A model generated the notes under the pieces. That model was given only the letters and a program-made list of their open reading frames with translations. It had not been told where the DNA came from and made no database searches. Shown one piece after another: positions 5,100-25,151 of a stretch of DNA of 26,425 nt. Numbering within the stretch: position 1 is the first letter of the stretch; every line of letters starts with the position of its first letter. This DNA comes from a virus: the IMG/VR virus record IMGVR_UViG_3300009378_000052, positions 1 to 26,425 of that record. One strand, 5' to 3'. Made by a program: the position numbers and the translations under genes.

Positions 5100-6344
5100 C
5101 TACAGGCTCCCGACCGGGGGCATGGGCACGGCGCGCAGGCCGATGGAGAACGTGCGGTAGTCCTCGACGCCGTCGATGACCGCGCCGTCCCACCTGGAGA
5201 TCACAGCGAACACGCCATCGGGCGCGTAGCCGCCACCGAGGGGGTCATCCATGTCCGGCACCCATAGCGCGGGTAGTGCGCCCTTGCGGTCGTACAGGCC
5301 CTCGAGCGCGCGGTACGTGGCGGCGTCCCAGTCCTCGAACGGCAACAGCACCTCGACGTGTCCGCGGGTGTCGGCGATGTTGAGCCCGCCGCCTGCGGCC
5401 GGGAACGACGCGACGCTGCCGGTCACCGGGATACGCCGCCATGGGGTGAGGAAGTTGACCTCTGGGGTGTAGTCGCGGCCGTCGAAGTTGGCATCGTCCC
5501 ACGCTTCGATCACGCCGAAACGGGCGTTGTCCATGCTGGCCTGCGCCTCGTTGCGGGTCCACTGGAGACACCAGTACCGCAGCGCGCCAGAGTAGATGGT
5601 GCCCGACGGCGGCGAGGTGTCGAAGATGACTAGATCGTTCAACTCGCTGCGCGTGGCCAGTACCTGCCCGCTCGTGTACTCCGCCGCTTCCCAGTCGTCG
5701 GGGTTGCTACCGAGGTCGGTGGTGTGGCCGTACAGGTACAGCCGGTCGGTCGTGCCCGCTGCTGCGGTCAGGTTCGTCGCGTAGACCATGAACGCCTCGG
5801 GGGTCGACCCCGTCGCGCCGATGTCCCACGCGGCCCACTGCCGGTCCTGCACGAACGTCGCGTTGTCGCTGACGTGGCTTGTTCCCGCCGAGGTGTCGGC
5901 CGTGCCGTCCCAGCCCATGACCAGGGCGAGGCCCATGGTGCGGGCGCTGTACGTCCAGTAGATGATCGTGTTGGCTGTGCTGGCGAAGGCGAACTTGCGG
6001 GTGCTGTTGTCGTACGTGACCACGACCACCGGATCGACGTACCCGGGGTTGGCTGCGAACTCCGCAGCGATCGCCGTGGTGAGGTACGTTCCCAGGCTCG
6101 CGCCGGTGTACCCGTCGTCGGTGAGCGTGAACCCGACGGAGTCCCCTGTGTCGGAGTTGGCGATCCGGATGTAGTCGCTTGCGTCGTCCCGCAGGATGAA
6201 CCCGGCGCCGAGCTCGAACAGGCGCCCCGGCCGGTGGTCCTGCGCGTTCGACCACGGCGCGGTCGCAACGGTCGTGCAAGTGTGTAGCAGCGTCGAGGGC
6301 AAGACGCCGTCCTCGTGCAGGTACACGCGCAGCGGAACGGTCAT
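5100..6344 (-). CDS. Distal tail / tail-tip structural protein
   Basis: This 414-residue protein directly follows the tape measure gene and overlaps it by four bases (ATGA). It probably caps the tail tube and links it to the hub. The N-terminal part (MTVPLRVYLHEDGVLPSTLL) is followed by a beta-rich body with repeated aromatic and Asp/Thr-rich strands. The C-terminal part (PWRRIPVTGSVASFPAAGGG, later HVEVLLPFEDWDAATYRALEGLYDR) resembles the final beta-domain of distal tail proteins, with a strand-helix-strand layout. No enzymatic motif is seen. The role follows from gene order; detectable similarity to a named family is only weak by eye. Confidence 0.66.
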   Translation of the reverse strand: MTVPLRVYLHEDGVLPSTLLHTCTTVATAPWSNAQDHRPGRLFELGAGFILRDDASDYIRIANSDTGDSVGFTLTDDGYTGASLGTYLTTAIAAEFAANPGYVDPVVVVTYDNSTRKFAFASTANTIIYWTYSARTMGLALVMGWDGTADTSAGTSHVSDNATFVQDRQWAAWDIGATGSTPEAFMVYATNLTAAAGTTDRLYLYGHTTDLGSNPDDWEAAEYTSGQVLATRSELNDLVIFDTSPPSGTIYSGALRYWCLQWTRNEAQASMDNARFGVIEAWDDANFDGRDYTPEVNFLTPWRRIPVTGSVASFPAAGGGLNIADTRGHVEVLLPFEDWDAATYRALEGLYDRKGALPALWVPDMDDPLGGGYAPDGVFAVISRWDGAVIDGVEDYRTFSIGLRAVPMPPVGSL

Positions 6345-8248
6345 CGGCCAGCCTCCAGCGCACCGCCGGACAGTCCGCCGCGGCCCGCTCGTGTCATGTC
6401 GACGATCCGATCCATCGTGAGGCGCCCGACGGTGCGGCCGTCCATGTTGACGGTCCCATCGACCTGCACCCGCGCCAGCCCGCCGCCCGCGGCGTACCCG
6501 TCGAACGGCTGGCCACCGTGGTTGCCGGCGATCATGTCCTCGACCATGCGGACGATGCGGGTAATCGACCCGGTGCCCTCGGGGTCCATCACAACCTCAT
6601 CGTTGCGGCGCATGACCAGCGAGTGACCGCCGCCGCCGGGCACCACGCCCGCGCCGCTGTCGGCGAGGGTGAGCGTCGGCATGAGGCCTTTGTCGCCGAG
6701 CGCGCCGGACAGGATGCCGAGGATGCCGCTGCCCGCCCCGGCCACGACGCCCGCCGCCGGCCCGCCGACCTGACCGATCACGCCGAGGATCGTCTGCGCG
6801 AGGCCGAGCACGACCTGCCCGGCGGACTGTTCGCCGCGGGTGAGGCTGGCCACGAAACCGATCACGCCCTGCACGGATGAGCCCACGTCGTTCCACGCGA
6901 CTTCGAGTTCCTGCGCGCCCTCGATGGCCGCGTCCTGCGCCTCGATGATCCCAGCGTAGGCCAGCGGCACGACGATCTCGCCTGACCCGCCCGCGCCGGC
7001 TGTCCCCTCTGCAACCTCGGCCGGGGTCGGCGCGCCCGCTGCTGCGGCTCCCGCACCAACCGGCACCCCACCTGCGCGAAGGTCGGCAAGCCGGGCCTTG
7101 AACGCCTCGACGTTGTCGCCGATCTCCTGCAACTCTGCGACTGTCTCGGCAAGGATGCCGAGCATGCGTTCCGCCGGTGCTCCCAGCGCGTCCGACGCGC
7201 GGCCGAACACGCCCGCGAGGTAGTCGATCCCGATGGCGTCGAACATGCCCGCGATCTTGTCGGTGACCCCCTGCAGGGTCAGGAGGACGGCCGTCGCCAC
7301 CCCTTCGATCGTGACCTCGACGATCTGCGGGAGGTGCATGATCGCCTGGATGAACCCGTAGATCACGACCGCCAACTCGTCGATCACGGGGATCACGCTG
7401 GACAGCATCGCGCGCCAGCCGCCCGACGTGCCGATCGACTCGGCCATGCTCTCGTTGAACGCGGTGAGGACCGGGGTGAATGAGATCGACAGGGTGTTGC
7501 GTAGGCCCATGGTGGCCACGTCCATCCGGTCGATCGAGTCGTTAAACTCCTCAGACACGTACAGCAGCTCATCGCTCATGTACGCGCCGTAGCGTTCCAA
7601 CTCGTTGTGTGCCTCGGCGATGGCGTCGCGGCCGTCGCGCAGGAGCGAGGCCATGTACCCGGTTCGGTCGCCGAGAAGTTGCGACGTGATCGCGGCCTGC
7701 TGCTGGGAGGGAATCAACTCCTGCTCGAAGGCGTCGGCCATCTCCAGCAGGACATCGGTTCCGTCTTTCAACTCGCCCTGCGAGTCGTGCGCCTGGATTC
7801 CCAGCCGGCCGAGCAGGTCAATCGCCGTTGACAGCCCGCGGTCAGCGTCGACGAGGGTCTTGTTCATGCGGAGAATCGACTTGTCGAGCGTTCGATTCTC
7901 GATGCCGGCGTACGTCGCGGCGAGCCGCCACGACTGCAGTTGTTCGGTGGTCGTGCCGAGGGCGCGGGACGTCTTGGCGAGGTCGTCGGCGAACTCGGCC
8001 TGTTCGCGCACGATCTCGGTGAGCTTGCCGATCGTCGCGTCGTAGGCGGTGTTGACCGCCTGTATGATCTTCTGCCCGACCTCGAGGGCCTGGTTGATGC
8101 CGAGCGACACCTGGACGAACTTCTCACCCCTGATACGGGTGCCGTCCATCCGGTCGCCGAGCTTGCCGAACTCGCCACCGACGCCCTTGATGCCCCTCTC
8201 GGCGCCGGAGCCGTCCGCTGTGAGCTTCCAATGGGTTCCGCCGGCCAT
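6341..8248 (-). CDS. Tape measure protein
   Basis: This 635-residue protein sets tail length and occupies the tube before DNA ejection. A charged helical N-terminal half (GIKGVGGEFGKLGDRMDGTR, later TEIVREQAEFADDLAKTSRA) is followed by a hydrophobic Ala/Gly/Ile-rich section with membrane-like stretches (VVIYGFIQAIM, VATAVLLTLQGV). The C-terminal part is Gly-rich. This is the usual tape-measure profile. The ATG is chosen because it forms TGATG with the stop of the frameshifted chaperone. At the usual rule of about 0.15 nm per residue the tail would be near 95 nm (inference). No lysozyme or peptidase motif is seen. Confidence 0.86.
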   Translation of the reverse strand: MAGGTHWKLTADGSGAERGIKGVGGEFGKLGDRMDGTRIRGEKFVQVSLGINQALEVGQKIIQAVNTAYDATIGKLTEIVREQAEFADDLAKTSRALGTTTEQLQSWRLAATYAGIENRTLDKSILRMNKTLVDADRGLSTAIDLLGRLGIQAHDSQGELKDGTDVLLEMADAFEQELIPSQQQAAITSQLLGDRTGYMASLLRDGRDAIAEAHNELERYGAYMSDELLYVSEEFNDSIDRMDVATMGLRNTLSISFTPVLTAFNESMAESIGTSGGWRAMLSSVIPVIDELAVVIYGFIQAIMHLPQIVEVTIEGVATAVLLTLQGVTDKIAGMFDAIGIDYLAGVFGRASDALGAPAERMLGILAETVAELQEIGDNVEAFKARLADLRAGGVPVGAGAAAAGAPTPAEVAEGTAGAGGSGEIVVPLAYAGIIEAQDAAIEGAQELEVAWNDVGSSVQGVIGFVASLTRGEQSAGQVVLGLAQTILGVIGQVGGPAAGVVAGAGSGILGILSGALGDKGLMPTLTLADSGAGVVPGGGGHSLVMRRNDEVVMDPEGTGSITRIVRMVEDMIAGNHGGQPFDGYAAGGGLARVQVDGTVNMDGRTVGRLTMDRIVDMTRAGRGGLSGGALEAGR

Positions 8249-9047
8249 CAATCAACCATGCCCTTCGAGACACGCCACGACTTGAACCGCGCGCTTCTGA
8301 CCTGCCCCGCTGCCGAGTGCAGCACCCGGAACGCTTCCATCTCCCACGCGTCTTGACGGTCGATGCCGCCCGGCCGCGGGAGGTGCCGGGGGTACTCCTC
8401 GCCACCACCACCGCAGTACAGGAACTTGTCGACGGTGTCCCACGCCTGCGTCGGTATGTCGTCGGGTGGCCACACCCCGAACAGGTAGTGACCTTGCCCC
8501 GCCCTCGACAGGAACGCGGGGTCGCACGACATCGGGGTACGGTACCGCTCGCCCTGCGCTTCCCATCGTGCGCGCTCCCGCTTGAGGTTGCCTGCGCCTA
8601 CCCTCCAGTGGTAGGCGACCCGGAGAAAGGGGCCTCGCCCTTCCCCACTCCCGCCGACTTGATGATCGCCTGCACGATCTCGTCGACGAGTACCTGGTCG
8701 TCCTCGACCCGATCCCACACCTTCCGCCAGCCGTCGACCTTGTCCGCGCCGCGCTCGCCGCGGGTGACCCGCTCGAACACGTACCGGCGCAGGTCGTCGG
8801 AGTCGCCGATCATGGCCTGCACGTCGCCGGGGTCGGGCGCCTCGCCGTCGGCCAGTGCCTCGACCCGTTCCGCGGCTTCCTTGGCCGCACCAACAAGGGC
8901 TTTCGCCCGGCACTGTAGGTCAGCGAGGAACCCGCCACGCTCACCCACCGAGAACGGCCGGAAGTAGATCGCGACCTGTTCATCGTCGGGCGCCGTGTCG
9001 TTGCCCGCTGTCGTCGGCACAAAGCGCCGATCCCGAGTCCATCCCAT
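8248..9047 (-). CDS. Tail assembly chaperone GT, made by -1 frameshift
   Basis: This is the predicted fusion of the upstream chaperone with a downstream reading frame that has no good start of its own. Ribosomes would read in frame from 9047 to the slippery CCCTTTC at 8631-8625, slip back one base and continue to the stop at 8248. The product is about 266 residues (141 plus 125). The extension begins LRVAYHWRVGAGNLKRERAR, contains WPPDDIPTQAWDTVDKFLYC and ends SWRVSKGMVD. Upstream of the tape measure in siphophages, a short and a frameshifted long product normally help assemble the tail; the layout here is the same. The exact slip site is inferred from X-XXY-YYZ geometry. Confidence 0.8.
8598..9047 (-). 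CDS. Tail assembly chaperone G (short form)
   Basis: This 149-residue protein lies between the tail tube and tape measure genes, the standard place of the gpG-like chaperone. It is largely helical and charged. The middle section (DLQCRAKALVGAAKEAAERV) and LVDEIVQAIIKSAGVGKGEA near the end support that picture. The ATG follows a GAGGGGCTTTGAC leader just after the tube gene. The reading frame ends in SPTTGG, nine codons past the slippery heptamer, so the normal product has a short unique tail. Sequence similarity to known chaperones is not evident by eye; gene order and frameshift architecture carry the call. Confidence 0.8.
   Translation of the reverse strand: MGWTRDRRFVPTTAGNDTAPDDEQVAIYFRPFSVGERGGFLADLQCRAKALVGAAKEAAERVEALADGEAPDPGDVQAMIGDSDDLRRYVFERVTRGERGADKVDGWRKVWDRVEDDQVLVDEIVQAIIKSAGVGKGEAPFSGSPTTGG
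8625..8631 (-). promoter_or_regulatory. -1 ribosomal frameshift slippery heptamer
   Basis: On the coding strand the heptamer is C-CCT-TTC. It lies in the zero frame as the last base of GCC followed by the Pro codon CCT and the Phe codon TTC, matching X-XXY-YYZ (CCC TTT C). A one-base backward slip lets both tRNAs re-pair as CCC and TTT, opening the frame that runs to 8248. The zero-frame stop is 27 bases below the heptamer. The GC-rich sequence between may help pause the ribosome; no clear pseudoknot was traced. Confidence 0.75.
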
Positions 9048-14148: not shown

Positions 14149-15141
14149 CTAGGCCGCGGTGACGTCGGAGAAGACGTACCCCGCCGCCGCCTGCGTGATC
14201 AGCTCGTCGACGTAGTGATCGCCCTGGATGACCTCGCCCTTGACGGTGTCGTCGCGGTACGTGGACGTCCCATAGCCCAGGTTGCCGATGTTGCCGCCCA
14301 TGCCGGTCCAGACCGGGGAGAACCCCAGGGACGGCGCCTTGAGCGTCGGGGTGCCCTTGGGCACGCTGTAGAAGCCGACGTAGTCGCCCCAGATGTAGCC
14401 CAGGGAGATCGACTGCCCGTCGTCCGCGGTGTTGTACGTGCCGGCACCGACCAGGAACTTGTCGACCTGCAGGTAGCGCATCCACTCGTCGCGGGTGATG
14501 ACCGAGGCGTCGCTGGTGTGCTTGACCGCGTCGACCAGGAACGGGTTGCGGCAGAAGCGATGCCACGCCTGGATGCTCGTCACGCACACGAGGTCGTTGC
14601 GGAGCGGGTCGTACGTGCCGTTGCTCATCATGGACTCGACCGCGGTGATGCGGTTGGCCCACGGGTCGGCGGTGTCGCTGTCCCAGCGGGTCGTGGTGAG
14701 CGCCGAGGTGTACGAGGCGAAGGTGGTGGTCGTGTCGAACAGGAGGGCGGCGTACCGCTGCTCCTGCGCGTTCATGAGGTTGGCTGCGACGATCGCGCCG
14801 TTGTCCGCGCGCGGGTCGATGCCGTCGTCGGAGTTCTCGACCTCCTCGTCGGAGCACACGATCTCCAGGCCGTAGTTCTCGGCGAAGTAGGCCGTGGTCG
14901 CCGAGACGTCCCACTCGTATCGGTTGTACGCGCTGCCGGGGCCGCGCAGGAACAGGCGCTGTCCGGCCGGGGCGGCGGTGGTGAAGAACGTACCGTCCGC
15001 GTAGGCCCAGATCTTGTCGCTCTGCTTCTTGACGGCGACCGGCTTGAGCACCTGGTGACCGATGTAGTCGGCGACCGGCACCTTCGCGAGCGACATGCTG
15101 GCCAGGGGCTGATCGACGTGGACTCTGTGAGTTGCGGGCAT
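14149..15141 (-). CDS. Major capsid protein
   Basis: This 330-residue protein is the most likely major head subunit. It is directly preceded by a decoration-protein gene, as is common in this gene order. The N-terminal part (MPATHRVHVDQPLASMSLAK, then VPVADYIGHQVLKPVAVKK) and the middle (DEEVENSDDGIDPRADNGAI) are typical of the HK97-fold group with a long N-arm. The C-terminus includes TYRDDTVKGEVIQGDHYVDE. The length lacks room for a large delta domain, which agrees with a separate scaffold being present. An excellent TAGGAGGACGCC site precedes the ATG. The fold is inferred from size, order and general resemblance, not a single motif. Confidence 0.82.
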   Translation of the reverse strand: MPATHRVHVDQPLASMSLAKVPVADYIGHQVLKPVAVKKQSDKIWAYADGTFFTTAAPAGQRLFLRGPGSAYNRYEWDVSATTAYFAENYGLEIVCSDEEVENSDDGIDPRADNGAIVAANLMNAQEQRYAALLFDTTTTFASYTSALTTTRWDSDTADPWANRITAVESMMSNGTYDPLRNDLVCVTSIQAWHRFCRNPFLVDAVKHTSDASVITRDEWMRYLQVDKFLVGAGTYNTADDGQSISLGYIWGDYVGFYSVPKGTPTLKAPSLGFSPVWTGMGGNIGNLGYGTSTYRDDTVKGEVIQGDHYVDELITQAAAGYVFSDVTAA

Positions 15142-15150
15142 GGCGTCCTC

Positions 15151-15549
15151 CTAGGCGTACGTGCCGTACTGACCGAAGGCGACCAGCATCCAGAAGGTGT
15201 CACCGTCGGCGGCGTCTTCCAGGGCGTGGCCCCAGATGTAGTTGCCGAGGGTGGTGGTTGCGATGGCGTTGCCGCTGGCGTCGGTGGTGATCTTGTCACC
15301 CTCGCCGATGGTGCCGCCGGCCTGCGCCTTGACCTTGCCGGCGACGCACAGCGTCAGCGCGGCCGAGGTGGAGTCGGAAGCGGCCTCGACCAGGACGCCC
15401 TTGGGGACGTCGGTGGCGGCGGTCGCGAGAGTGGCCTTGCCGCTGTTCTCCTTGAACAGGAACCCCGCCTTGGAGGAGCTGTCGGCACTGGCCTGGTACG
15501 CCATCGTCTCGGCACCTGCGCCGAGCGGGACCTTGTAGACACTCGACAT
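15151..15549 (-). CDS. Head decoration protein (DUF2190-like)
   Basis: This 132-residue protein is small and beta-rich. Its Ala/Gly/Thr-rich repeats include KAGFLFKENSGKATLATAAT and GGTIGEGDKITTDASGNAIA, and it ends WGHALEDAADGDTFWMLVAF. This matches DUF2190-type capsid decoration proteins, which sit on the shell surface and stabilise it. It lies between scaffold and major capsid, the usual place. A GGGAGGACTAGACC leader supports the ATG. Recognition is by pattern rather than a strict motif. Confidence 0.72.
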   Translation of the reverse strand: MSSVYKVPLGAGAETMAYQASADSSSKAGFLFKENSGKATLATAATDVPKGVLVEAASDSTSAALTLCVAGKVKAQAGGTIGEGDKITTDASGNAIATTTLGNYIWGHALEDAADGDTFWMLVAFGQYGTYA

Positions 15550-15552
15550 GGT

Positions 15553-16023
15553 CTAGTCCTCCCTGCTGTCGTAGGCGGTCGCCCACTCGGGGTGGTTGGC
15601 GCGGGCGAGCCCGAACGCGGCCGGGTAGCCGTAGGCCTTGCCGTCGCTCATGAGGGACAGGGCGGCGTTGTTGAGCTTGTTCCCCGCGTCCTCGCGCGAC
15701 AGGGGCGCGTCGGTGCTGGTGTCCGGCTTGTCGCCGCCCTTGGTCTTGTCGACCGGGACGACCTTGGCGGAGTAGATGCGGGCAGCGCGGTCGGCGTCCT
15801 GCTGGTAAGCCCAGCGGGCGTCCTCCTCGCGGTCCTCGGTGAGCCTGCCGTCGTCGTACAGCTCGCGCACGAACGCGTCCTCGGCGATCTTCGCCGTGGC
15901 GGCCTCGTGCTCATCGCGCTGCTCGCGAAGGCGTGCGTTGTCGGCCTGCAGTGCCTTGACCGTCGACTCGATCTTGTCCTCGTCGACGCCCAGCACCTTG
16001 GCCAGTGCCTTGATATCGGGCAT
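15553..16023 (-). CDS. Nested scaffold protein (internal start)
   Basis: A separate product of 156 residues is predicted from an in-frame ATG at codon 358 of the protease gene. AGGAGG lies five bases upstream. It begins MPDIKALAKVLGVDEDKIES and continues with a long coiled-coil stretch (VKALQADNARLREQRDEHEA), then an Asp/Lys-rich section and a hydrophobic C-terminal helix. This is the profile of a capsid scaffold. Mu makes gpZ and lambda Nu3 in the same way, from an internal start inside the protease gene. Expression is inferred from the ribosome site and the family habit. Confidence 0.78.
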   Translation of the reverse strand: MPDIKALAKVLGVDEDKIESTVKALQADNARLREQRDEHEAATAKIAEDAFVRELYDDGRLTEDREEDARWAYQQDADRAARIYSAKVVPVDKTKGGDKPDTSTDAPLSREDAGNKLNNAALSLMSDGKAYGYPAAFGLARANHPEWATAYDSRED

Positions 16024-17094
16024 GGATTCCTCCTGTGTAGCCCTGTTGTGCTCGCCCTCTCGGGTACTTTCCGGCGCCCCTGTGGCGCCCCCGGAATGGG
16101 CGTCGGTGTGATGCGGTCCAGCCGCCCGGCTTGCGACCAGGGCGGGGATGTCTAGGAAGGGTTGGTTCGTCAGCGTGCCGCCGGTGATGGTCCAGCCGAG
16201 CACGTCCTCGACGGACTCGCCGAACACGGGGCCGGCTTCGAGGCTGAAGTAGCGGAACCCCTCGGAGCGGATCAACTCCAGGCCCTCGACGGTCCAGCGG
16301 ATCAGCGCTTCGATGTGTTCCCCGTCGCAGCGTAGCGCGGTGATCCACCCGCGGGCCTTGGTCGTTTCGGGGTCGGCGTAGCCCAACCATGTAGCGTGGT
16401 TGACGTCGACCGGCACCTCACGGCCGACCACGTCGAACAGGCGCACGTAGTCGTGCAGCTCCTCGGCGGTGATCTCGACGTCCGCGTCCCCACCGAGCGG
16501 GTAGCCGCTGGTCTTGCCGACGCTGGCGATGATGTGCCACCGGCTGCGGTCCTCGGCGTCGTCGGGGTCGTCGTACAGCCGGCCGAACGCGACGGGCGAT
16601 CCCAGCCGCGAGGTGACCTCACCCTTGACGGCGAGCGCGACGATCTGCGCGATGGCCTGGTCTTGCGTGACCGGCGGGTCGTCGAGCTTCTCCCGGATGC
16701 GGGCGTTGTACGCCTCGACGTGGGCGGGGTCCAGCCCGCGCGCCTCGGCTCGCTGCTCGACCTCGTCGGCGGGCGACTCCTCTACCCGGATGCGGTGGGC
16801 GTTGTAGCCGGTGAGGGCGTCGTTGACGGTGGTGCCGATCCCGCTGCTCTCGACGATCGCCACGTCGGCGGTGACGTCCTCGAGCCACGCGTCGAGGTCT
16901 GCGCGCTGCTGGTCGGCAACGTCGGTCCGTCGGCGCCAATCCATGCGCCCGGCCTCGTCGATGACGTCGTGCTCGCGGTACCACTCCCACGCGTCCCAGT
17001 GCTCGACCTTGTCGCCGAGCCGCTCCGCGGCCTGCTCACGCACGTACGTTTTGCCTGCGAGCTGCGGCCCTACGAGGTGAACGAACGCGGTCAT
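15553..17094 (-). CDS. P-loop domain fused to Mu I-like prohead protease and scaffold
   Basis: This 513-residue protein has three parts. Residues 1-150 are a P-loop domain with Walker A GPQLAGKT (9-16) and a Walker B-like ADVAIVESSG (76-85). This looks like a small kinase or zeta-toxin-type fold. Residues 186-323 match the Mu gpI-like protease: VDVNHATWLGY (229-239), ARGWITAL, IRWTVEGLELIRSEGFRYFS and GGTLTNQPFLDIPAL. H233 and S284 are candidate active-site residues. Residues 358-513 form a helical scaffold. The ATG overlaps the preceding stop as ATGA. Protease-scaffold fusion is normal, but the N-terminal P-loop is not part of the usual Mu I protein. The ATPase activity and its role are not known. 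Confidence 0.83.
   Translation of the reverse strand: MTAFVHLVGPQLAGKTYVREQAAERLGDKVEHWDAWEWYREHDVIDEAGRMDWRRRTDVADQQRADLDAWLEDVTADVAIVESSGIGTTVNDALTGYNAHRIRVEESPADEVEQRAEARGLDPAHVEAYNARIREKLDDPPVTQDQAIAQIVALAVKGEVTSRLGSPVAFGRLYDDPDDAEDRSRWHIIASVGKTSGYPLGGDADVEITAEELHDYVRLFDVVGREVPVDVNHATWLGYADPETTKARGWITALRCDGEHIEALIRWTVEGLELIRSEGFRYFSLEAGPVFGESVEDVLGWTITGGTLTNQPFLDIPALVASRAAGPHHTDAHSGGATGAPESTREGEHNRATQEESMPDIKALAKVLGVDEDKIESTVKALQADNARLREQRDEHEAATAKIAEDAFVRELYDDGRLTEDREEDARWAYQQDADRAARIYSAKVVPVDKTKGGDKPDTSTDAPLSREDAGNKLNNAALSLMSDGKAYGYPAAFGLARANHPEWATAYDSRED
16029..16034 (-). promoter_or_regulatory. Internal ribosome site for the nested scaffold
   Basis: AGGAGG is followed by AATCC and the in-frame ATG at 16023. 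It lies within the protease gene, at codons for Q-E-E-S, where such a strong site is not needed for the long protein. It decides the scaffold start. Confidence 0.8.
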
Positions 17095-17186
17095 GCGCCC
17101 CCCCACCATGGCCAGTCGAGATGCACGGCGAGCCATGCCACGGACCCTACGATGCCCACCCACAATAGGATCGACTCGTGACTCAT
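17091..17186 (-). CDS. 31-residue one-helix membrane peptide
   Basis: This tiny gene is linked on both sides by ATGA overlaps, with the Cys microprotein above and the protease below. The product begins MSHESILLWVGIVGSVAWLA and carries one transmembrane helix at about residues 6-22, then a Trp-rich end (WPWWGGA). No family is recognised. The double overlap and hydrophobic profile support a real gene. A membrane peptide in the head operon is odd; it could be a small lysis or membrane-targeting factor. Confidence 0.62.
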   Translation of the reverse strand: MSHESILLWVGIVGSVAWLAVHLDWPWWGGA

Positions 17187-17323
17187 CGTGTCCCCCGCGG
17201 GACGTAGCACGAGCAGTGCGAGTCGGTGCGCGTCTTGAGGAACGCCACGCCGCGCAGGGCGAGGCACACCCACCGAGGCCAGCGGACCATGCGGCGCAGG
17301 TGCTCGCAGGTGTCGCAGGTCAC
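17183..17323 (-). CDS. 46-residue Cys-rich microprotein
   Basis: The product begins MTCDTCEHLRRMVRWPRWVC and ends in a basic segment with a second Cys pair (SHCSCYVPRGTR). C3 and C6 form a CxxC, with C20 and the C37-x-C39 pair available as further ligands, so it could bind zinc. Net charge is positive, and it may bind nucleic acid (inference). The GTG overlaps the portal stop as GTGA, and the stop overlaps the next ATG. A second Cys-rich protein of the same length is encoded at 23067-23207, but the two sequences do not look alike. Confidence 0.65.
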   Translation of the reverse strand: MTCDTCEHLRRMVRWPRWVCLALRGVAFLKTRTDSHCSCYVPRGTR

Positions 17324-20061
17324 GGCGTGCCCCCTGTCGGCGGGACGGTCAGGCCGATGATGGTGCAGTAGCAGGTCGAACCGCCGTAACAGCGGGGCGA
17401 CGGAACCGCGAACCAGTCCACGTCGGCGGGGTCGCTGACCTTGAACGGGTTGCGGGGGTCGCTCGCCGTGTACTGGCATGCGATGCACGGGGTGTGCCCG
17501 CCGCCGTCCTTGCCGCCGAGTTCCGGCGTCAGGGTGTAGATCCCCCACATGACGTCGCTCGCTGCGAGTTGCTTTGCCCGCCCGCCCGCGTGGGAGCCGT
17601 TGACGTCGCCGCGCACGGTGGCCTCTGGGGCGAGGTCGGCCATTGCCCCGTCGAGCAGCGCCGTCGCCGAGGTGCCCCCGGACATGGACGCGTCCTGGTG
17701 TCGCTTGCGCGCCGCCTGCTGCACGTCCTGTAGGAGCTTGTCGGCCGTGGTGCGCGCTGCGGCCTGCTCCCACATGTCGAGCTGTTCGCTGTCGATGTCG
17801 TCCCAGCCGTCGCCCTCGGCCATGGCCACGCCCGCGGCGGACAGGGCGGCTGCGAGCTTCGACGGATAGTCGCCGTCGTCCTGCTGCTGCGCGACCTCGC
17901 CCTTGACCTCGGCCTCGCCTTCCTCACGAACGGCGCGGTACGCCTCGGCGAGGAAGTCAACCAGGTCGTCGCGCTGATAGTCGGTGACCTCGAGGGTCAG
18001 GTCTGCGGCCTCGGCCATGTCGGCGCCGGCAAGGGCCTCGGCGAACGGCTCGGCGATGGCGCGGATCTTCGGGGTCACGCTGTCGGCGACCATGTTGGTC
18101 ATGTCGTCGCGGGTGGCGCGGCTGGCCTCGGCGTTGAAGGTGGCCTCGGCGAGCGCCTGCATCGGCCCACACGCCTCGACGTACTCGGCCGCGGTCATGC
18201 CGGGCTTGTACGGCACGCGGGCACCGGCCTCGTCAGCGAGGGCAACGTGACCGCCGCAACAGCGGGTCGCCGCCACGCCGCCCGGCTCCCCGGCGTCACC
18301 CTCGCTGTCTGGGCTGTCGCCCTCGGCACCGAGGTCCGAGTCGGGGGAGTCGCCACCGGGCGGGGGCGGCGGGGTGCCGTCGTCGTCGTCGTCGTCGTCG
18401 GGATCGGGGTCAGGCTCGGCCGCGGGGTCAGGCTCGGCCGCGGGGTCAGGCTCGATGTCCGGGTCGGGCTCCTCGACGTCGGCGAGAATGGCGTCGGCTG
18501 CGTCCTCGGTGAGGCGGAATACCTCGACCAGCATGGCGCGCGCTGACGACTTGGGGATCTTGCCTGTGACCACCGATGCCACGACCTCGACCACCTTGGC
18601 GGCGTCGATGTCCGGCGCGTCGGGTTCGACAGCGCCCTGCACCTCGTACGCCTCGGTCAGCGCCTCGCCCCCGTCGGGGTAGCCGCCCTCGCGGCGCAAC
18701 CACCGCTCGTCCTCGATGGTCGGGTGCCACACCCCAGCGTCGCGCGCCGCCCTCCAGTCCCCGGCGATCTTGCCCATGTCCGTCTGTACGAGGTCGCCGT
18801 ACGTGACCGACGGGGCGAGGTCGGGGTCAAACCCGTTCCACTGCACCCACTCCTCGGCGAGGTCGTTGTACGGGGCGCAGACGTAGTCGGCGAGGTGCGA
18901 GGCGTTGAAGAGGAACAGGTCGCGCTGCCCGCCGAACAGGGCTTGCGTGCCGTTGCTCTCGCCGGTGTATAGGTGCATGCACCCGGTGGCGCGGCACATG
19001 GACTTGCCGAGCATGCGCCACCACTCAGCCATGGCCTTGGCGAATTCCATCCGGGCTTCGAGGATGCCGAACTCCGCGCCGTAGGGCGACTCGAGGAACA
19101 TGTTTTGATGCTGCGCGTAGTCGCGGGCGATGTCCCGAAGGTCGCTCCAGTCCTGGTCGTCGAGAACGTTGGGGACAGTTTCCTTGACCTGGGGCACGCC
19201 GCCCGCGTGGCGGTTGAAGGCGATCTCGGCGAGCAGCTGGATACGCTTGCGCGTCATCGCCCTCGACCAGCACGAGCGGATCAGGGGGTCGCCCTCCCAG
19301 TTGCTGCCTTCCTCGTCGTACGCCCAGCGCAGCAGGTTCTCGGCGGGGATGGTCGGCTCGTTGCCGAAGGTGCCGGAGTCGTCCTGCCGCCACCACTGGA
19401 TCACGCCACCGAACGAGCCGTCTTCCTGCGTGACCCACTTGTCGATGCTGTGCGGAAGCCGGGGGGCGAGGTCGAACACGTACCACCCCTTGCGGGTGCC
19501 TGTGCCCTTGACCCACTCGCCGGAGTCGTCCTGCTCGTACCGGGGGAGCGCGAGGCTGTTGTCGCGGTAGACGGTGCGTTCCTGGATGCGGACCCCGTCG
19601 CGCAGGCACAGGGCGGCGTCAAGTAGCCGCTTGCCCCACAGCCGCTTGCGCCGGCCCATCAACAGCAGCTCGAACGCCCGCGCCAGCATGACCGCGTCGG
19701 CGCTGTTCTCGCCGGCCGGGGCGACGTCCCACGACGTGCCCATCAAGGCGTGCGTGTAGCTGTACACGATGCCGCGGACGTCGTCGTCTTCCTTGGCGAT
19801 CCGCCGCCCGGCGCCCACGGTCGAGGCTGTGCCCCGCCATGCGCCCATGTCCAGGTCGGCGTTGTGCTCGCTCGCGTCGTCGCGGAAGTAGCCGCCCGAC
19901 CGCTGCATCCCGTCGTGCCCGATGGGGCGGGTGTGCTTGGGCGGCTTGACCGTCGGCCCCTTGGCGAGCGCTACCGGCTCGGCGGGCGCACCTCGGCCGA
20001 GGATGCGGGCGAACAGGGATCGGCGTGCGGGCGAGGAAGGGGCGACCATCGCCCCTAGCAT
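17320..20061 (-). CDS. Portal protein (DUF935-like) fused to MuF-like domain
   Basis: This 913-residue protein likely forms the portal through which DNA is packaged. The first 520 or so residues resemble DUF935/Mu gp29 portals, with DDDVRGIVYSYTHALMGTSW, then ENLLRWAYDEEGSNWEGDPL and later RMEFAKAMAEWWRMLGKSM. A low-complexity acidic and Pro linker (about 555-610) follows. The C-terminal 270 residues look MuF-like, ending with CIACQY (C859, C862) and Cys at 891, 897 and 899 that may bind metal. Normally these are two genes. The first ATG has no good ribosome site; the ATG at 20049, after GCTAGGGGCG, is an alternative. It ends in a GTGA overlap. Confidence 0.82.
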   Translation of the reverse strand: MLGAMVAPSSPARRSLFARILGRGAPAEPVALAKGPTVKPPKHTRPIGHDGMQRSGGYFRDDASEHNADLDMGAWRGTASTVGAGRRIAKEDDDVRGIVYSYTHALMGTSWDVAPAGENSADAVMLARAFELLLMGRRKRLWGKRLLDAALCLRDGVRIQERTVYRDNSLALPRYEQDDSGEWVKGTGTRKGWYVFDLAPRLPHSIDKWVTQEDGSFGGVIQWWRQDDSGTFGNEPTIPAENLLRWAYDEEGSNWEGDPLIRSCWSRAMTRKRIQLLAEIAFNRHAGGVPQVKETVPNVLDDQDWSDLRDIARDYAQHQNMFLESPYGAEFGILEARMEFAKAMAEWWRMLGKSMCRATGCMHLYTGESNGTQALFGGQRDLFLFNASHLADYVCAPYNDLAEEWVQWNGFDPDLAPSVTYGDLVQTDMGKIAGDWRAARDAGVWHPTIEDERWLRREGGYPDGGEALTEAYEVQGAVEPDAPDIDAAKVVEVVASVVTGKIPKSSARAMLVEVFRLTEDAADAILADVEEPDPDIEPDPAAEPDPAAEPDPDPDDDDDDDGTPPPPPGGDSPDSDLGAEGDSPDSEGDAGEPGGVAATRCCGGHVALADEAGARVPYKPGMTAAEYVEACGPMQALAEATFNAEASRATRDDMTNMVADSVTPKIRAIAEPFAEALAGADMAEAADLTLEVTDYQRDDLVDFLAEAYRAVREEGEAEVKGEVAQQQDDGDYPSKLAAALSAAGVAMAEGDGWDDIDSEQLDMWEQAAARTTADKLLQDVQQAARKRHQDASMSGGTSATALLDGAMADLAPEATVRGDVNGSHAGGRAKQLAASDVMWGIYTLTPELGGKDGGGHTPCIACQYTASDPRNPFKVSDPADVDWFAVPSPRCYGGSTCYCTIIGLTVPPTGGTP
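18378..18454. repeat. CGT run and 18-base tandem repeat in the portal linker
   Basis: A (CGT)n run at 18378-18400 is followed by about 2.7 copies of the 18-base unit GGGGTCAGGCTCGGCCGC at 18406-18454 (plus strand). On the coding strand they make an Asp run and AEPDPA repeats in the linker between the portal and MuF-like domains. The repeat keeps the reading frame and could vary in copy number between relatives. Confidence 0.85.
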
Positions 20062-20693: not shown

Positions 20694-22235
20694 CTACATG
20701 TCCCGCTCGACCGCCGCAGCGGGCGAGGGTCGCCGGCCACGTCGGGCGGTGGGCTGTGGTTCCGGTGTTTCCCTGTCGGCGGGGGCGCGGGAGCTGCGCC
20801 AGCCCTCGCGGTCCACTCGCTTGAACCCCGCGAGGTTGACGGCGAGGTAGCGCGCCACGTCGCAGGGGTGGGACCACGCATCCCAGCGGACCGACCTGTC
20901 CGGCTCGTCGCTGCCGTCCTTGAGCGGCTGCTCGGTGAGCGCTTGCCAGATCCCGACAACGGGCTGGTTGTCGTGCCCCCTGCGGTGCCGCGCCCCCTGC
21001 AGGTGCCTCGCCACGAAGAACCGGCGTACCCCCATGGCCGAACACATCCACGCACGCAGCCGCTCGCAGCCCACGGTGATGATGCGGTCCTCGGGGTGCT
21101 CGGCCGTCTTGAGCGTGCACGCGATGCCGTAGTCGCGCAGGGTGTTGGACATCGTCAGGTAGTCGCTCGTGCCCGTCGTGGACTGCACCGCCTTGCCGGC
21201 GGGGTCCATGATCAGGGTCAGGTGCGAGCGCCCCTTGACGGCGGGGTGACGGGCCAACTCGTGCGCCTGCTGCTCGGTGCTCATGTCGGCGAGGGCCAAC
21301 TCGCTGAACGCTACCCACAGGCTGGGGTCGAATTCCTGCACGAGGGCGAGGAACGGGCGGCGGTATCCGGGGTCCCACCCGACCGTCAGCGGCAACTCGC
21401 GGTCGCCGTCAGGGTCGTAGTCGATGACGTTGGCCTCGCCCATGTCGGGGTAGACCAGGCCGGACAGGAGGACAAACTCGCCCTCAAGCATGGCGCGGGC
21501 CATCTGAGGCGAGTACATCTCGCGCAGGCTGTCGATGTAGTCGGGCGGGAGGTTGGCGGCGTTCGCCCTGGTCGGCATCGCCAACCGCAGCACGCCCGCG
21601 TGTGACGGTACCCCGTCGACCAGCCCACGGCAGCGCTCGTGCAGCCACGACAGCGACCGACCCGGCTGTGGGGTGTACGTGTTGAGCACGAACCGCACCG
21701 GGTACCCCGTCTGCCGCAGGCGCTCACGGATACGGCGCTGGGCTTCGGGGAGGTACAGCGTTGCCTCGTCGGTGAGGATGCACGCGAATTCGCCACCCTC
21801 CAGCGACTTCGCCCCGTCGTGCCCGGTCGCCCACACCAACTCGTCACCCCAGATCGTCGTGAGCCGCTTCGCCATCCAGTTGAACGAGGCGATCGCGGGG
21901 TTCTTGCGGAAGGGGCCGGCCCAGCCCGTCGCCCCGTTGATGACGCCCTCCAGCCCGGCCATGGTGACGTGTCGGAGCTGCGCGCCGTCAGAGGACACCA
22001 GCCCGTAGCGCGCGCCCGGCCCGGCCTGTCGGTTGATGGCCATGGCCTTGGCCAGCACGTTGACCCCGGTCGTGGTCTTCGCCGCCCCGAACCCGCCCGT
22101 GTTGTGAATGTCCGTCGCGGTCGGGTGCTGGCATGCACGCCACACCCACGATTGGTAGGCGTTCGGGGTGATGGCCCGGCCGTCGCGGTCGTACCAGGAT
22201 GCGAAGTCGTACCGCGGGCTACTCGTCGTCGGCAT
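20694..22235 (-). CDS. terL: Terminase large subunit
   Basis: This 513-residue protein is the ATP-driven DNA-packaging motor. The Walker A-type P-loop is NTGGFGAAKTTT (G47 to T54, with K53) and the Walker B is ACILTDEA with D156 and E157. The nuclease part has GWDPG (D288) and LIMDPAGKA (D344), plus a late acidic region (SHPCDVARYLAVN) expected to complete the metal site. Length is typical. The ATG overlaps the end of the small subunit gene by 17 bases. The last 50 residues are Arg/Pro-rich and probably flexible. The portal lies three genes further on. Confidence 0.93.
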   Translation of the reverse strand: MPTTSSPRYDFASWYDRDGRAITPNAYQSWVWRACQHPTATDIHNTGGFGAAKTTTGVNVLAKAMAINRQAGPGARYGLVSSDGAQLRHVTMAGLEGVINGATGWAGPFRKNPAIASFNWMAKRLTTIWGDELVWATGHDGAKSLEGGEFACILTDEATLYLPEAQRRIRERLRQTGYPVRFVLNTYTPQPGRSLSWLHERCRGLVDGVPSHAGVLRLAMPTRANAANLPPDYIDSLREMYSPQMARAMLEGEFVLLSGLVYPDMGEANVIDYDPDGDRELPLTVGWDPGYRRPFLALVQEFDPSLWVAFSELALADMSTEQQAHELARHPAVKGRSHLTLIMDPAGKAVQSTTGTSDYLTMSNTLRDYGIACTLKTAEHPEDRIITVGCERLRAWMCSAMGVRRFFVARHLQGARHRRGHDNQPVVGIWQALTEQPLKDGSDEPDRSVRWDAWSHPCDVARYLAVNLAGFKRVDREGWRSSRAPADRETPEPQPTARRGRRPSPAAAVERDM

Positions 22236-23898: not shown

Positions 23899-24266
23899 TC
23901 CACCCAATCCTCCCGCCCGAAGGCGTCCCAACACTGCCGCAACAGCAGGTAGAAGTCGTCCGCCCGCAACGTCACCAGGTCGACCCGCGGCGAGCTGCCC
24001 CCTGGGCTGTTCTTGCGCGACACGACCACCGGCACCCGGTCGCACGCGTCGGCGTTGACCTCGGCCTGCAGCATGGCGCGGTAGATGTTCGGGCGCTGCC
24101 CCGCCTTGCACTCGGGGGCGAAGTAGGGCAGGCGCAGGTCGGGGTCTCGACTCCCCTCCCACGACTGCGCGCCGCGGAACACCTCGCACCCCGGCATCGC
24201 CTCGCGGAACAGCCGGGCGGCGTGCTGCTCGAAGGCCCGGCCCTTGCGTCGGCTACGCGCTCCCAT
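23895..24266 (-). CDS. PD-(D/E)XK nuclease, resolvase-like
   Basis: This 123-residue protein has a compact nuclease core. E13 lies in KGRAFEQHAARLFREA; D43 is in SRDPDLRLPYF; then E52-C-K54 (APECKAG) forms the D-x-n-ExK triad, and Q67 lies in MLQAEVN. The preceding RGAQS also fits. This matches small phage Holliday-junction resolvase or VRR-type endonucleases. The ATG lies inside the end of the MT-A70 methyltransferase gene, a 14-base overlap. It may resolve branched DNA before packaging. Restriction-type partnership with the neighbouring methylase is an alternative. Confidence 0.76.
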   Translation of the reverse strand: MGARSRRKGRAFEQHAARLFREAMPGCEVFRGAQSWEGSRDPDLRLPYFAPECKAGQRPNIYRAMLQAEVNADACDRVPVVVSRKNSPGGSSPRVDLVTLRADDFYLLLRQCWDAFGREDWVE

Positions 24267-24939
24267 GTGCCCCCCCGAACATGCTGCACTGTGCCGGGTT
24301 CGGATGGTACGGCGCACCCTTGAGTTTCGCCTTTGCGTGCCGGTACCGCTCGGCGTCGATCTCCGCGCCGAGGTAGGCCCGGCCGGTCGCCGCGCATGCC
24401 CTCGCCATCGGGGCGAGCCCGGCGTAGAGGTCGAGCACGAGGTCGCCGGGGTCGGTCCACGCTCTCAGCGCCTCGGCCAGCCACCCCTCGGGCTTCTCGC
24501 TGTGCTGCCCTCGCTGCGAGATGTGAGTGTTGCTGATCGCCCGGTTGACCGTCGCGCCACCGTCGTGCACGTACACGAGCACGGGTTCGGACATACCGCG
24601 CCAGTGGTGCCCTTGGCCTAGCCGGTCATCCTTGGCCCACGCCCCACCGGTCACGTACCGCCACGGGCGCACGTCCTGCGCCATCCAGTCGCCGAGTTGC
24701 GGCCATGTCGACCACAGCATGAGGCGGGCTGTCGGAAGCGCGCAGCGGGCGGACTCGCGGATGTGCTCGGCGATGTCGGCGATCGACAGGGTGTCGTAGT
24801 GCTCGGAGACGTTGGCTAGGCTTCCGTCGCCGCGGGGCGATCGGTTGCCGTACACCCACGGCGGATCAGCATGCACAAGCCTCGCCCCCCGCGCCTCGGT
24901 GAGCACATCGGCCACGTCGCAGCATCGCAGATCGATCAT
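24253..24939 (-). CDS. MT-A70-type DNA adenine methyltransferase
   Basis: This 228-residue protein probably methylates adenine N6 in phage DNA. The catalytic DPPW is at 25-28, after the strand LVHA. MLWSTWPQLGDW follows, then HSEKPEGW (146-153) and the SAM-binding DLYAGLAPMARAC (170-182) with an acidic ribose-binding residue in LGAEID. This N-terminal DPPW, C-terminal SAM motif order is characteristic of the MT-A70 and beta-class group. The ATG overlaps the upstream stop as ATGA; a longer GTG reading is possible. The tail carries QCSMF, like the QTSMF end of the other methyltransferase. The target sequence is unknown. Confidence 0.86.
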   Translation of the reverse strand: MIDLRCCDVADVLTEARGARLVHADPPWVYGNRSPRGDGSLANVSEHYDTLSIADIAEHIRESARCALPTARLMLWSTWPQLGDWMAQDVRPWRYVTGGAWAKDDRLGQGHHWRGMSEPVLVYVHDGGATVNRAISNTHISQRGQHSEKPEGWLAEALRAWTDPGDLVLDLYAGLAPMARACAATGRAYLGAEIDAERYRHAKAKLKGAPYHPNPAQCSMFGGAHGSA

Positions 24940-25151
24940 CGCCGCCCCCTGCACGACACCCACACCCTACCGTCGGGCGCCTCGACCGCCACAGGGGCGC
25001 CGGGATACACCCGCCGGACCATGTCCATCTTGCCCACCGCCTCGGCGTACGTGTCCGCCCCCGTCGCCACGATGGTCGACTCACCATCGCGCCTACCTGC
25101 TACGACGAGGTACGGCCGTTCGTGGATGGCGGGCGGGGTGCGTACTACCAC
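24936..25151 (-). CDS. Hypothetical small protein
   Basis: This 71-residue protein contains PYLVVAGRRDGESTIVATGA, then DTYAEAVGKMDMVRRVYPGA and WVSCRGRR. It looks like a small beta-alpha-beta fold. The chosen GTG at 25151 overlaps the preceding stop by seven bases; an upstream GTG at 25181 would add ten residues and overlap more. The stop overlaps the methyltransferase start as ATGA. Function is unknown. Confidence 0.58.
   Translation of the reverse strand: MVVRTPPAIHERPYLVVAGRRDGESTIVATGADTYAEAVGKMDMVRRVYPGAPVAVEAPDGRVWVSCRGRR

What the first reader, a model, noticed from the sequence alone, without database searches (positions are those of the whole stretch)
15553..17094. P-loop NTPase domain fused in front of a Mu I-like protease and scaffold
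Residues 9-16 read GPQLAGKT and residues 76-85 read ADVAIVESSG, a Walker A/B pair in a kinase-like domain of about 150 residues. It is followed in the same frame by a clear Mu gpI-like protease and scaffold. Known Mu I proteins have no ATPase part. The gene could link nucleotide hydrolysis with head maturation, or the domain could be a modified kinase or toxin recruited into the head. The fusion is seen in sequence; the function is inference.
Basis: partly seen in the sequence, partly recalled or inferred. Interest (0 to 1): 0.72.

Follow-up and report, generated by a model that had tools for sequence, protein, structure and literature searches.

The report
P-loop domain fused to phage head protease
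A phage gene joins a probable nucleotide-binding (P-loop) domain to the protease and scaffold that build the phage head; joining extra enzymes to head proteins is a known phage habit, but this particular pairing was not found in any other sequence searched.

Summary
The ORF at 17094..15553 (-) is real. It is 513 aa in one frame, sits between a portal gene and the cement and major capsid genes, and must be translated as a fusion, because no ATG/GTG/TTG lies in frame between residues 78 and 217. Residues ~183-326 are a Mu I-like prohead protease (PF10123, 3.5e-15; the AlphaFold model resembles herpesvirus and T4 gp21 proteases). Residues 358-513 are a scaffold with its own AGGAGG...ATG, an internal start conserved in relatives.

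The N-terminal 158 residues carry a strand-GPQLAGKT-helix P-loop. The Walker A plus hhhhE layout recurs in 9 of 300,000 shuffles. Kinase identity beyond the P-loop is only suggestive: no family hit, no homologue found, AlphaFold uninformative, and shikimate-kinase similarity rests on residues 1-27 alone. Only the dephospho-CoA-kinase profile gains from the rest (3 of 500 controls).

About 15 of 80 related viral proteases have other long N-terminal additions (NUDIX+DUF6582, MuF-like). Published work describes NUDIX-protease and kinase-MuF fusions as virion-packaged effectors. Most likely this is another accessory domain carried into the head by the protease-scaffold, possibly released by proteolysis and ejected. 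Nucleotide-driven head maturation is unsupported. New variant of a known kind.

The parts
15553..17094 (-). Whole fused gene, 513 aa: P-loop domain + Mu I-like protease + scaffold
16621..17094 (-). N-terminal P-loop domain, residues 1-158
17047..17070 (-). Walker A GPQLAGKT, residues 9-16
16840..16869 (-). Walker-B-like strand ADVAIVESSG, residues 76-85 (E82)
16549..16620 (-). Low-confidence linker, residues 159-182; candidate processing site (inference)
   Evidence: pLDDT < 50 for 150-175
16117..16548 (-). Mu I-like / assemblin-fold prohead protease, residues 183-326; invariant D230, H233, S284
16029..16034 (-). AGGAGG Shine-Dalgarno for the internal scaffold start
15553..16023 (-). Helical scaffold, residues 358-513, with its own ATG (Mu Z-like nested product)
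17091..17186 (-). 31-aa hydrophobic ORF whose TGA overlaps the fusion's ATG
17320..20061 (-). Portal protein, 913 aa, with acidic linker and Cys-rich C-terminal part
15151..15549 (-). Cement/decoration protein (PF09956)
14149..15141 (-). Major capsid protein (phrog_1005)
20694..22235 (-). Terminase large subunit (phrog_2)

Best explanation
The gene is a head-protein fusion of the 'polyvalent' style. SHOWN: one polypeptide carries (1) a P-loop-bearing domain, (2) a Mu I-like, assemblin-fold prohead protease and (3) its scaffold, and the scaffold can also be made alone from an internal start. INFERRED: the scaffold segment carries some copies of the full-length fusion into the procapsid. The protease then cleaves scaffold and linkers, including the flexible 159-182 segment. 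This leaves an ~17-kDa P-loop domain inside the head, where it binds (and perhaps phosphorylates) a nucleotide or other small molecule, and it is ejected with the DNA as an early host-acting or counter-defence factor. The protease-scaffold module works as in Mu. The P-loop domain is cargo, not a motor.
For: Single obligatory ORF. Protease family, fold and conserved D230/H233/S284. Internal scaffold ATG with SD conserved in relatives, as published for KS10 gp28/gp29 (PMC2628397). P-loop statistically real (hhalign to SKI and AAA_18 profiles beats every full shuffle). Low-confidence linkers on both sides of the protease. Recurrent other N-terminal domains on the same protease: NUDIX+DUF6582 (L024), DUF6582 (L057, L066), HTH_3 (L130), portal (L137). 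A head-protease-family protein joined to a 2H phosphoesterase in Gordonia phage Lilbeanie. Literature: assemblin-like peptidases sit C-terminally in polyvalent proteins and a zeta-toxin-like kinase is fused to MuF (PMC5512222); NUDIX is fused to the capsid-processing serine peptidase (PMC9503650).
Against: No homologue of the N-terminal domain was found anywhere searched, so no conservation of catalytic residues can be shown and the fusion rests on one contig. Packaging, cleavage and ejection are not testable from sequence. SKI and ADK similarity vanishes as evidence once residues 1-27 are held fixed, so the kinase fold is not established.
Confidence: 0.45

Rival explanations
1. The P-loop domain is an assembly or timing part: nucleotide binding controls protease-scaffold oligomerisation or activation during head maturation.
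For: It is in the same chain as the protease and scaffold and always co-synthesised with them.
Against: About 145 relatives run the same protease-scaffold without it. Other N-terminal additions are unrelated to each other, which fits cargo rather than a shared control part. No tool result points to coupling.
Confidence: 0.12
2. It is an ordinary small-molecule or nucleotide kinase that acts in the infected cell; the fusion is incidental and the domain acts before or after cleavage, with no packaging.
For: The dephospho-CoA-kinase profile aligns over 125 columns including the R...R lid region, better than 497 of 500 tail shuffles. The ATGA start overlap and late-operon position are plain expression features.
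Against: Late head-operon expression is a poor time for a metabolic enzyme. Metabolic kinases are normally stand-alone genes (general knowledge).
Confidence: 0.2
3. Residues 1-158 are a degenerate or non-enzymatic remnant (or a different fold with a chance GxxxxGKT), serving as a pro-region or as nothing.
For: No family hit, no homologues, AlphaFold single-sequence model uninformative. Walker A lacks the second glycine of GxxGxGK, and the Walker-B acid is Glu.
Against: Strand + Walker A + hhhhE arrangement in 9 of 300,000 shuffles. Codon-position GC is normal throughout, so the region is under coding use.
Confidence: 0.17
4. Sequencing or assembly error joined two separate genes.
For: One contig only; no second copy of the fusion was found.
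Against: No usable start codon for a separate protease between residues 78 and 217. Codon-position GC pattern is unbroken across the junction, and there are no stops. Relatives begin with a start at the position equal to residues ~165-170, where the window has none.
Confidence: 0.06

Closest known systems
Phage Mu protein I (protease) with nested Z scaffold, PF10123 / phrog_328
   Same: Protease core, conserved D..H and S, C-terminal scaffold with internal start, place before cement and major capsid genes.
   Different: 158-residue P-loop domain plus linker in front; relatives in the phage collection start at the position equal to residues ~165-190.
NUDIX-DUF6582-Mu I protease fusion (viral contig L024) and the published NUDIX-capsid serine peptidase fusions (PMC9503650)
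   Same: An enzyme-type domain placed N-terminally on the same protease.
   Different: NUDIX hydrolase, not P-loop; longer linker with DUF6582.
Polyvalent proteins / MuF fusions with zeta-toxin-like kinase (PMC5512222)
   Same: Kinase-type P-loop domain tied to a head protein; assemblin-like peptidase at the C-terminal side.
   Different: The carrier here is the protease-scaffold, not MuF; no zeta-toxin profile match.
Gordonia phage Lilbeanie gp16, annotated 'RNA ligase'
   Same: Actinophage head-protease-family protein fused to an accessory enzyme domain (2H phosphoesterase), sitting between MuF and capsid genes.
   Different: Accessory domain is C-terminal, a different fold, and the protease family differs.

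Membership tests
Mu I-like prohead protease (PF10123) | Profile match above curated cut-off | tested here: met
   56.8 bits against cut-off 25.2
Mu I-like prohead protease (PF10123) | Conserved D..H and S with assemblin-type fold | tested here: met
   D230, H233, S284 invariant in 47 sequences; AlphaFold pLDDT mostly 75-96 over the protease core, top PDB matches are herpesvirus proteases and T4 gp21, though Foldseek E only 8e-3; viral library E to 1.7e-13
Mu I-like prohead protease (PF10123) | In-frame nested scaffold start | tested here: met
   AGGAGG + ATG358; same position in relatives
P-loop NTPase | Walker A after a hydrophobic strand, before a helix | tested here: met
   FVHLVGPQLAGKTYVREQAAERL; shuffle test
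P-loop NTPase | P-loop fold by structure prediction | tested here: inconclusive
   Single-sequence model mean pLDDT 55.7; N-domain also poor in full-length model
P-loop kinase of SKI / AAA_18 / CoaE type | Similarity beyond the P-loop (substrate and lid regions) | tested here: inconclusive
   With residues 1-27 fixed: SKI 181/200 and ADK 429/500 shuffles as good; AAA_18 18/200; CoaE 3/500
Zeta toxin | Zeta_toxin profile match | tested here: not met
   No Pfam family at E <= 10; HMMER filters may miss very distant members
Polyvalent, virion-delivered protein | Accessory enzyme-type domain fused to a head component | tested here: met
   One ORF, protease + scaffold + P-loop domain
Polyvalent, virion-delivered protein | Packaged and ejected into host | not testable with these tools
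   Needs virion proteomics and ejection assay

The most novel reading that the evidence does not exclude
The N-terminal domain is an active P-loop NTPase that gates prohead protease-scaffold action, so that head maturation in this phage depends on nucleotide state. No prohead protease known to me does this.
Probability: 0.08. Interest if true: 0.75.

Novelty: new variant of a known kind. Interest (0 to 1): 0.4.

Why it matters
If the cargo reading is right, the protease-scaffold is a general carrier that phages use to load different enzymes into heads, alongside the known MuF and portal carriers. This case adds a P-loop, possibly kinase, cargo. It gives a clean test: does the same protease that removes the scaffold also free the cargo, and does the cargo reach the host?

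Tried and rejected
Close relatives in IMG/VR and GTDB genomes by peptide patterns (N-domain, whole protein, MCP, TerL): none. DNA patterns for VGPx.AGKT[YF] and GPQLAGKTY in IMG/VR: none (the patterns do match the window). tblastn of the N-domain in phages and plasmids: no significant hit. Pfam, NCBIfam and PDB sequence searches of the N-domain: nothing significant (AroL 0.077). PADLOC search of the whole protein: nothing. AlphaFold of residues 1-167: unusable, so no fold search was made on it. Scan of all ORFs in the loci then held for a stand-alone version of the domain: none. Shikimate-kinase affiliation looked good but was rejected as a specific claim after the P-loop-fixed control. First ADK profile was mis-built (Neff 1) and redone. 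An early two-motif shuffle test failed to match the real sequence because of a badly written pattern and was rewritten. A search of actinobacterial genomes was intended, but the only handle obtainable (L103, titled Enemella) evidently led to proteobacteria.

Full report
WHAT IS THERE. The window is a whole 26,425-base virus record without named host, 69% G+C. On the minus strand it runs terminase large subunit (20694-22235), portal (17320-20061), a 31-aa hydrophobic ORF (17186-17091), the fused gene (17094-15553), a cement protein (15151-15549), the major capsid protein (14149-15141), then tail genes including a tape measure (6341-8251). Relatives are remote: capsid 25-30%, protease 20-35%.

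THE FUSION IS REAL IN THE SEQUENCE. The ORF has no stop. Codon-position G+C is that of a coding frame along the whole length, with third position 0.87-1.00 except at the linker 301-390, where it falls to 0.75-0.78. In-frame ATG/GTG/TTG codons lie at residues 1, 18, 51, 78 and then 217. The protease fold starts at about residue 183, so the protease cannot be started separately. Residue 1 is supported by an ATGA overlap with the preceding small ORF. The caveat is that only this one contig shows it.

PROTEASE AND SCAFFOLD. PF10123 3.5e-15 over residues 205-400 and phrog_328 6.3e-19. Forty-seven aligned relatives share invariant D230, H233, S284, G193 and W250. An AlphaFold model with this alignment gives a confident beta-rich domain (184-309), a disordered segment (327-358) and a helical scaffold (359-510). 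Its nearest solved structures are herpesvirus proteases and T4 gp21, by weak but consistent scores (best E 8e-3, probability up to 1.00), and many phage head proteases by strong scores. The scaffold has its own AGGAGG-ATG at 16023, and nearly all relatives checked have an SD-preceded ATG at the same place. This is the embedded scaffold described for Mu-like phages such as KS10 (PMC2628397).

N-TERMINAL DOMAIN. Residues 4-27 read FVHLVGPQLAGKTYVREQAAERLG: strand, Walker A, helix. Residues 78-82 (VAIVE) are a Walker-B-like strand, and 99-119 (AHRIRVEESPADEVEQRAEAR) resemble the last strand and lid region of small P-loop kinases (my reading). Under composition shuffling the strand + Walker A + hhhhE layout arises 9 times in 300,000. 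In profile comparison the domain scores 30.1 against shikimate kinases and 31.6 against AAA_18, above every full shuffle (maxima 22.6 of 200 and 20.2 of 100). However, with residues 1-27 held fixed and only the rest shuffled, shikimate-kinase and adenylate-kinase scores are matched by most controls (181/200, 429/500). AAA_18 is matched by 18/200, and only the CoaE profile stays distinct (3/500; 125 aligned columns). Five families were tried, so that last result is suggestive, not proof. Conclusion: P-loop probable, kinase plausible, subfamily unknown.

HOW COMMON. Of 80 viral and 53 genomic Mu I-like loci plus hits from 399 genomes and 80 capsid-linked loci, none has a Walker A in front of the protease. 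About 15 of the 80 viral ones have other long in-frame N-terminal parts. Pfam confirms NUDIX + DUF6582 (L024), DUF6582 (L057 and L066), HTH_3 (L130) and a Mu portal (L137) in front of PF10123; L130 and L137 are genomic loci. The L013 group carries a domain found in phrog_2859. Gordonia phage Lilbeanie gp16, sitting between MuF and capsid genes, is a head-protease-family protein with a 2H phosphoesterase at its C terminus.

KNOWN BACKGROUND. Iyer and co-workers report that assemblin-like peptidases occur at the C termini of polyvalent proteins and that a zeta-toxin-like kinase is fused to MuF (PMC5512222). A later survey reports NUDIX fused to MuF, portal and the capsid-processing serine peptidase, read as packaged and injected (PMC9503650). 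The window's protein fits this pattern with a different cargo.

MECHANISM, STEP BY STEP. Shown: gene structure, domain order, protease family and fold, nested scaffold start, P-loop motif. Inferred: full-length fusion co-assembles through its scaffold; the protease cleaves the linkers; the P-loop domain stays in the head and leaves with the DNA; it binds or phosphorylates a small molecule in the new host. Nothing found supports nucleotide-driven head maturation, and relatives do without the domain.

VERDICT. A sound observation with an over-reaching functional guess: a new variant of the known practice of attaching accessory domains to head proteins. Interest 0.4.

Noticed in passing
window 17320-20061 (-): 913-aa portal with an Asp/Pro-rich linker and a Cys-rich C-terminal segment (HTPCIACQ...PSPRCYGGSTCYC) that looks MuF-like by eye; no Pfam or PHROG match, so a portal-MuF fusion is only a guess.
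   Followed up: partly
L024:6726-9674: NUDIX + DUF6582 + Mu I-like protease in one 983-aa ORF.
   Followed up: yes
L013, L014, L015, L016, L017, L019, L038, L039, L040, L076 and L256: A shared N-terminal domain (GMTPVGLARARDLANGK...WGGDAGYAWARKVVRQM, phrog_2859-like) fused in front of the Mu I-like protease; function unknown.
   Followed up: partly
L137:2611-4623 and L130:2538-4031: Mu portal domain, and an HTH_3 domain, fused in frame in front of the Mu I-like protease in planctomycete MAGs; could be real or assembly effects.
   Followed up: no
L387:8767-10419 (Gordonia phage Lilbeanie gp16): Protein annotated 'RNA ligase' is a head-protease-family protein with a C-terminal 2H phosphoesterase domain; the public name hides the head role.
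   Followed up: partly
L103 (record titled Enemella evansiae TN21-6): Its Mu I-like protease resembles those of Rhodobacter-group phages, and a search of 'its phylum' returned proteobacteria-like genomes (e.g. a gammaproteobacterial-type GyrA), so the title is probably wrong or the genome mixed.
   Followed up: no
window 24253-24963 (-): N6/N4-type DNA methyltransferase (PF01555), probably an orphan phage methylase.
   Followed up: no
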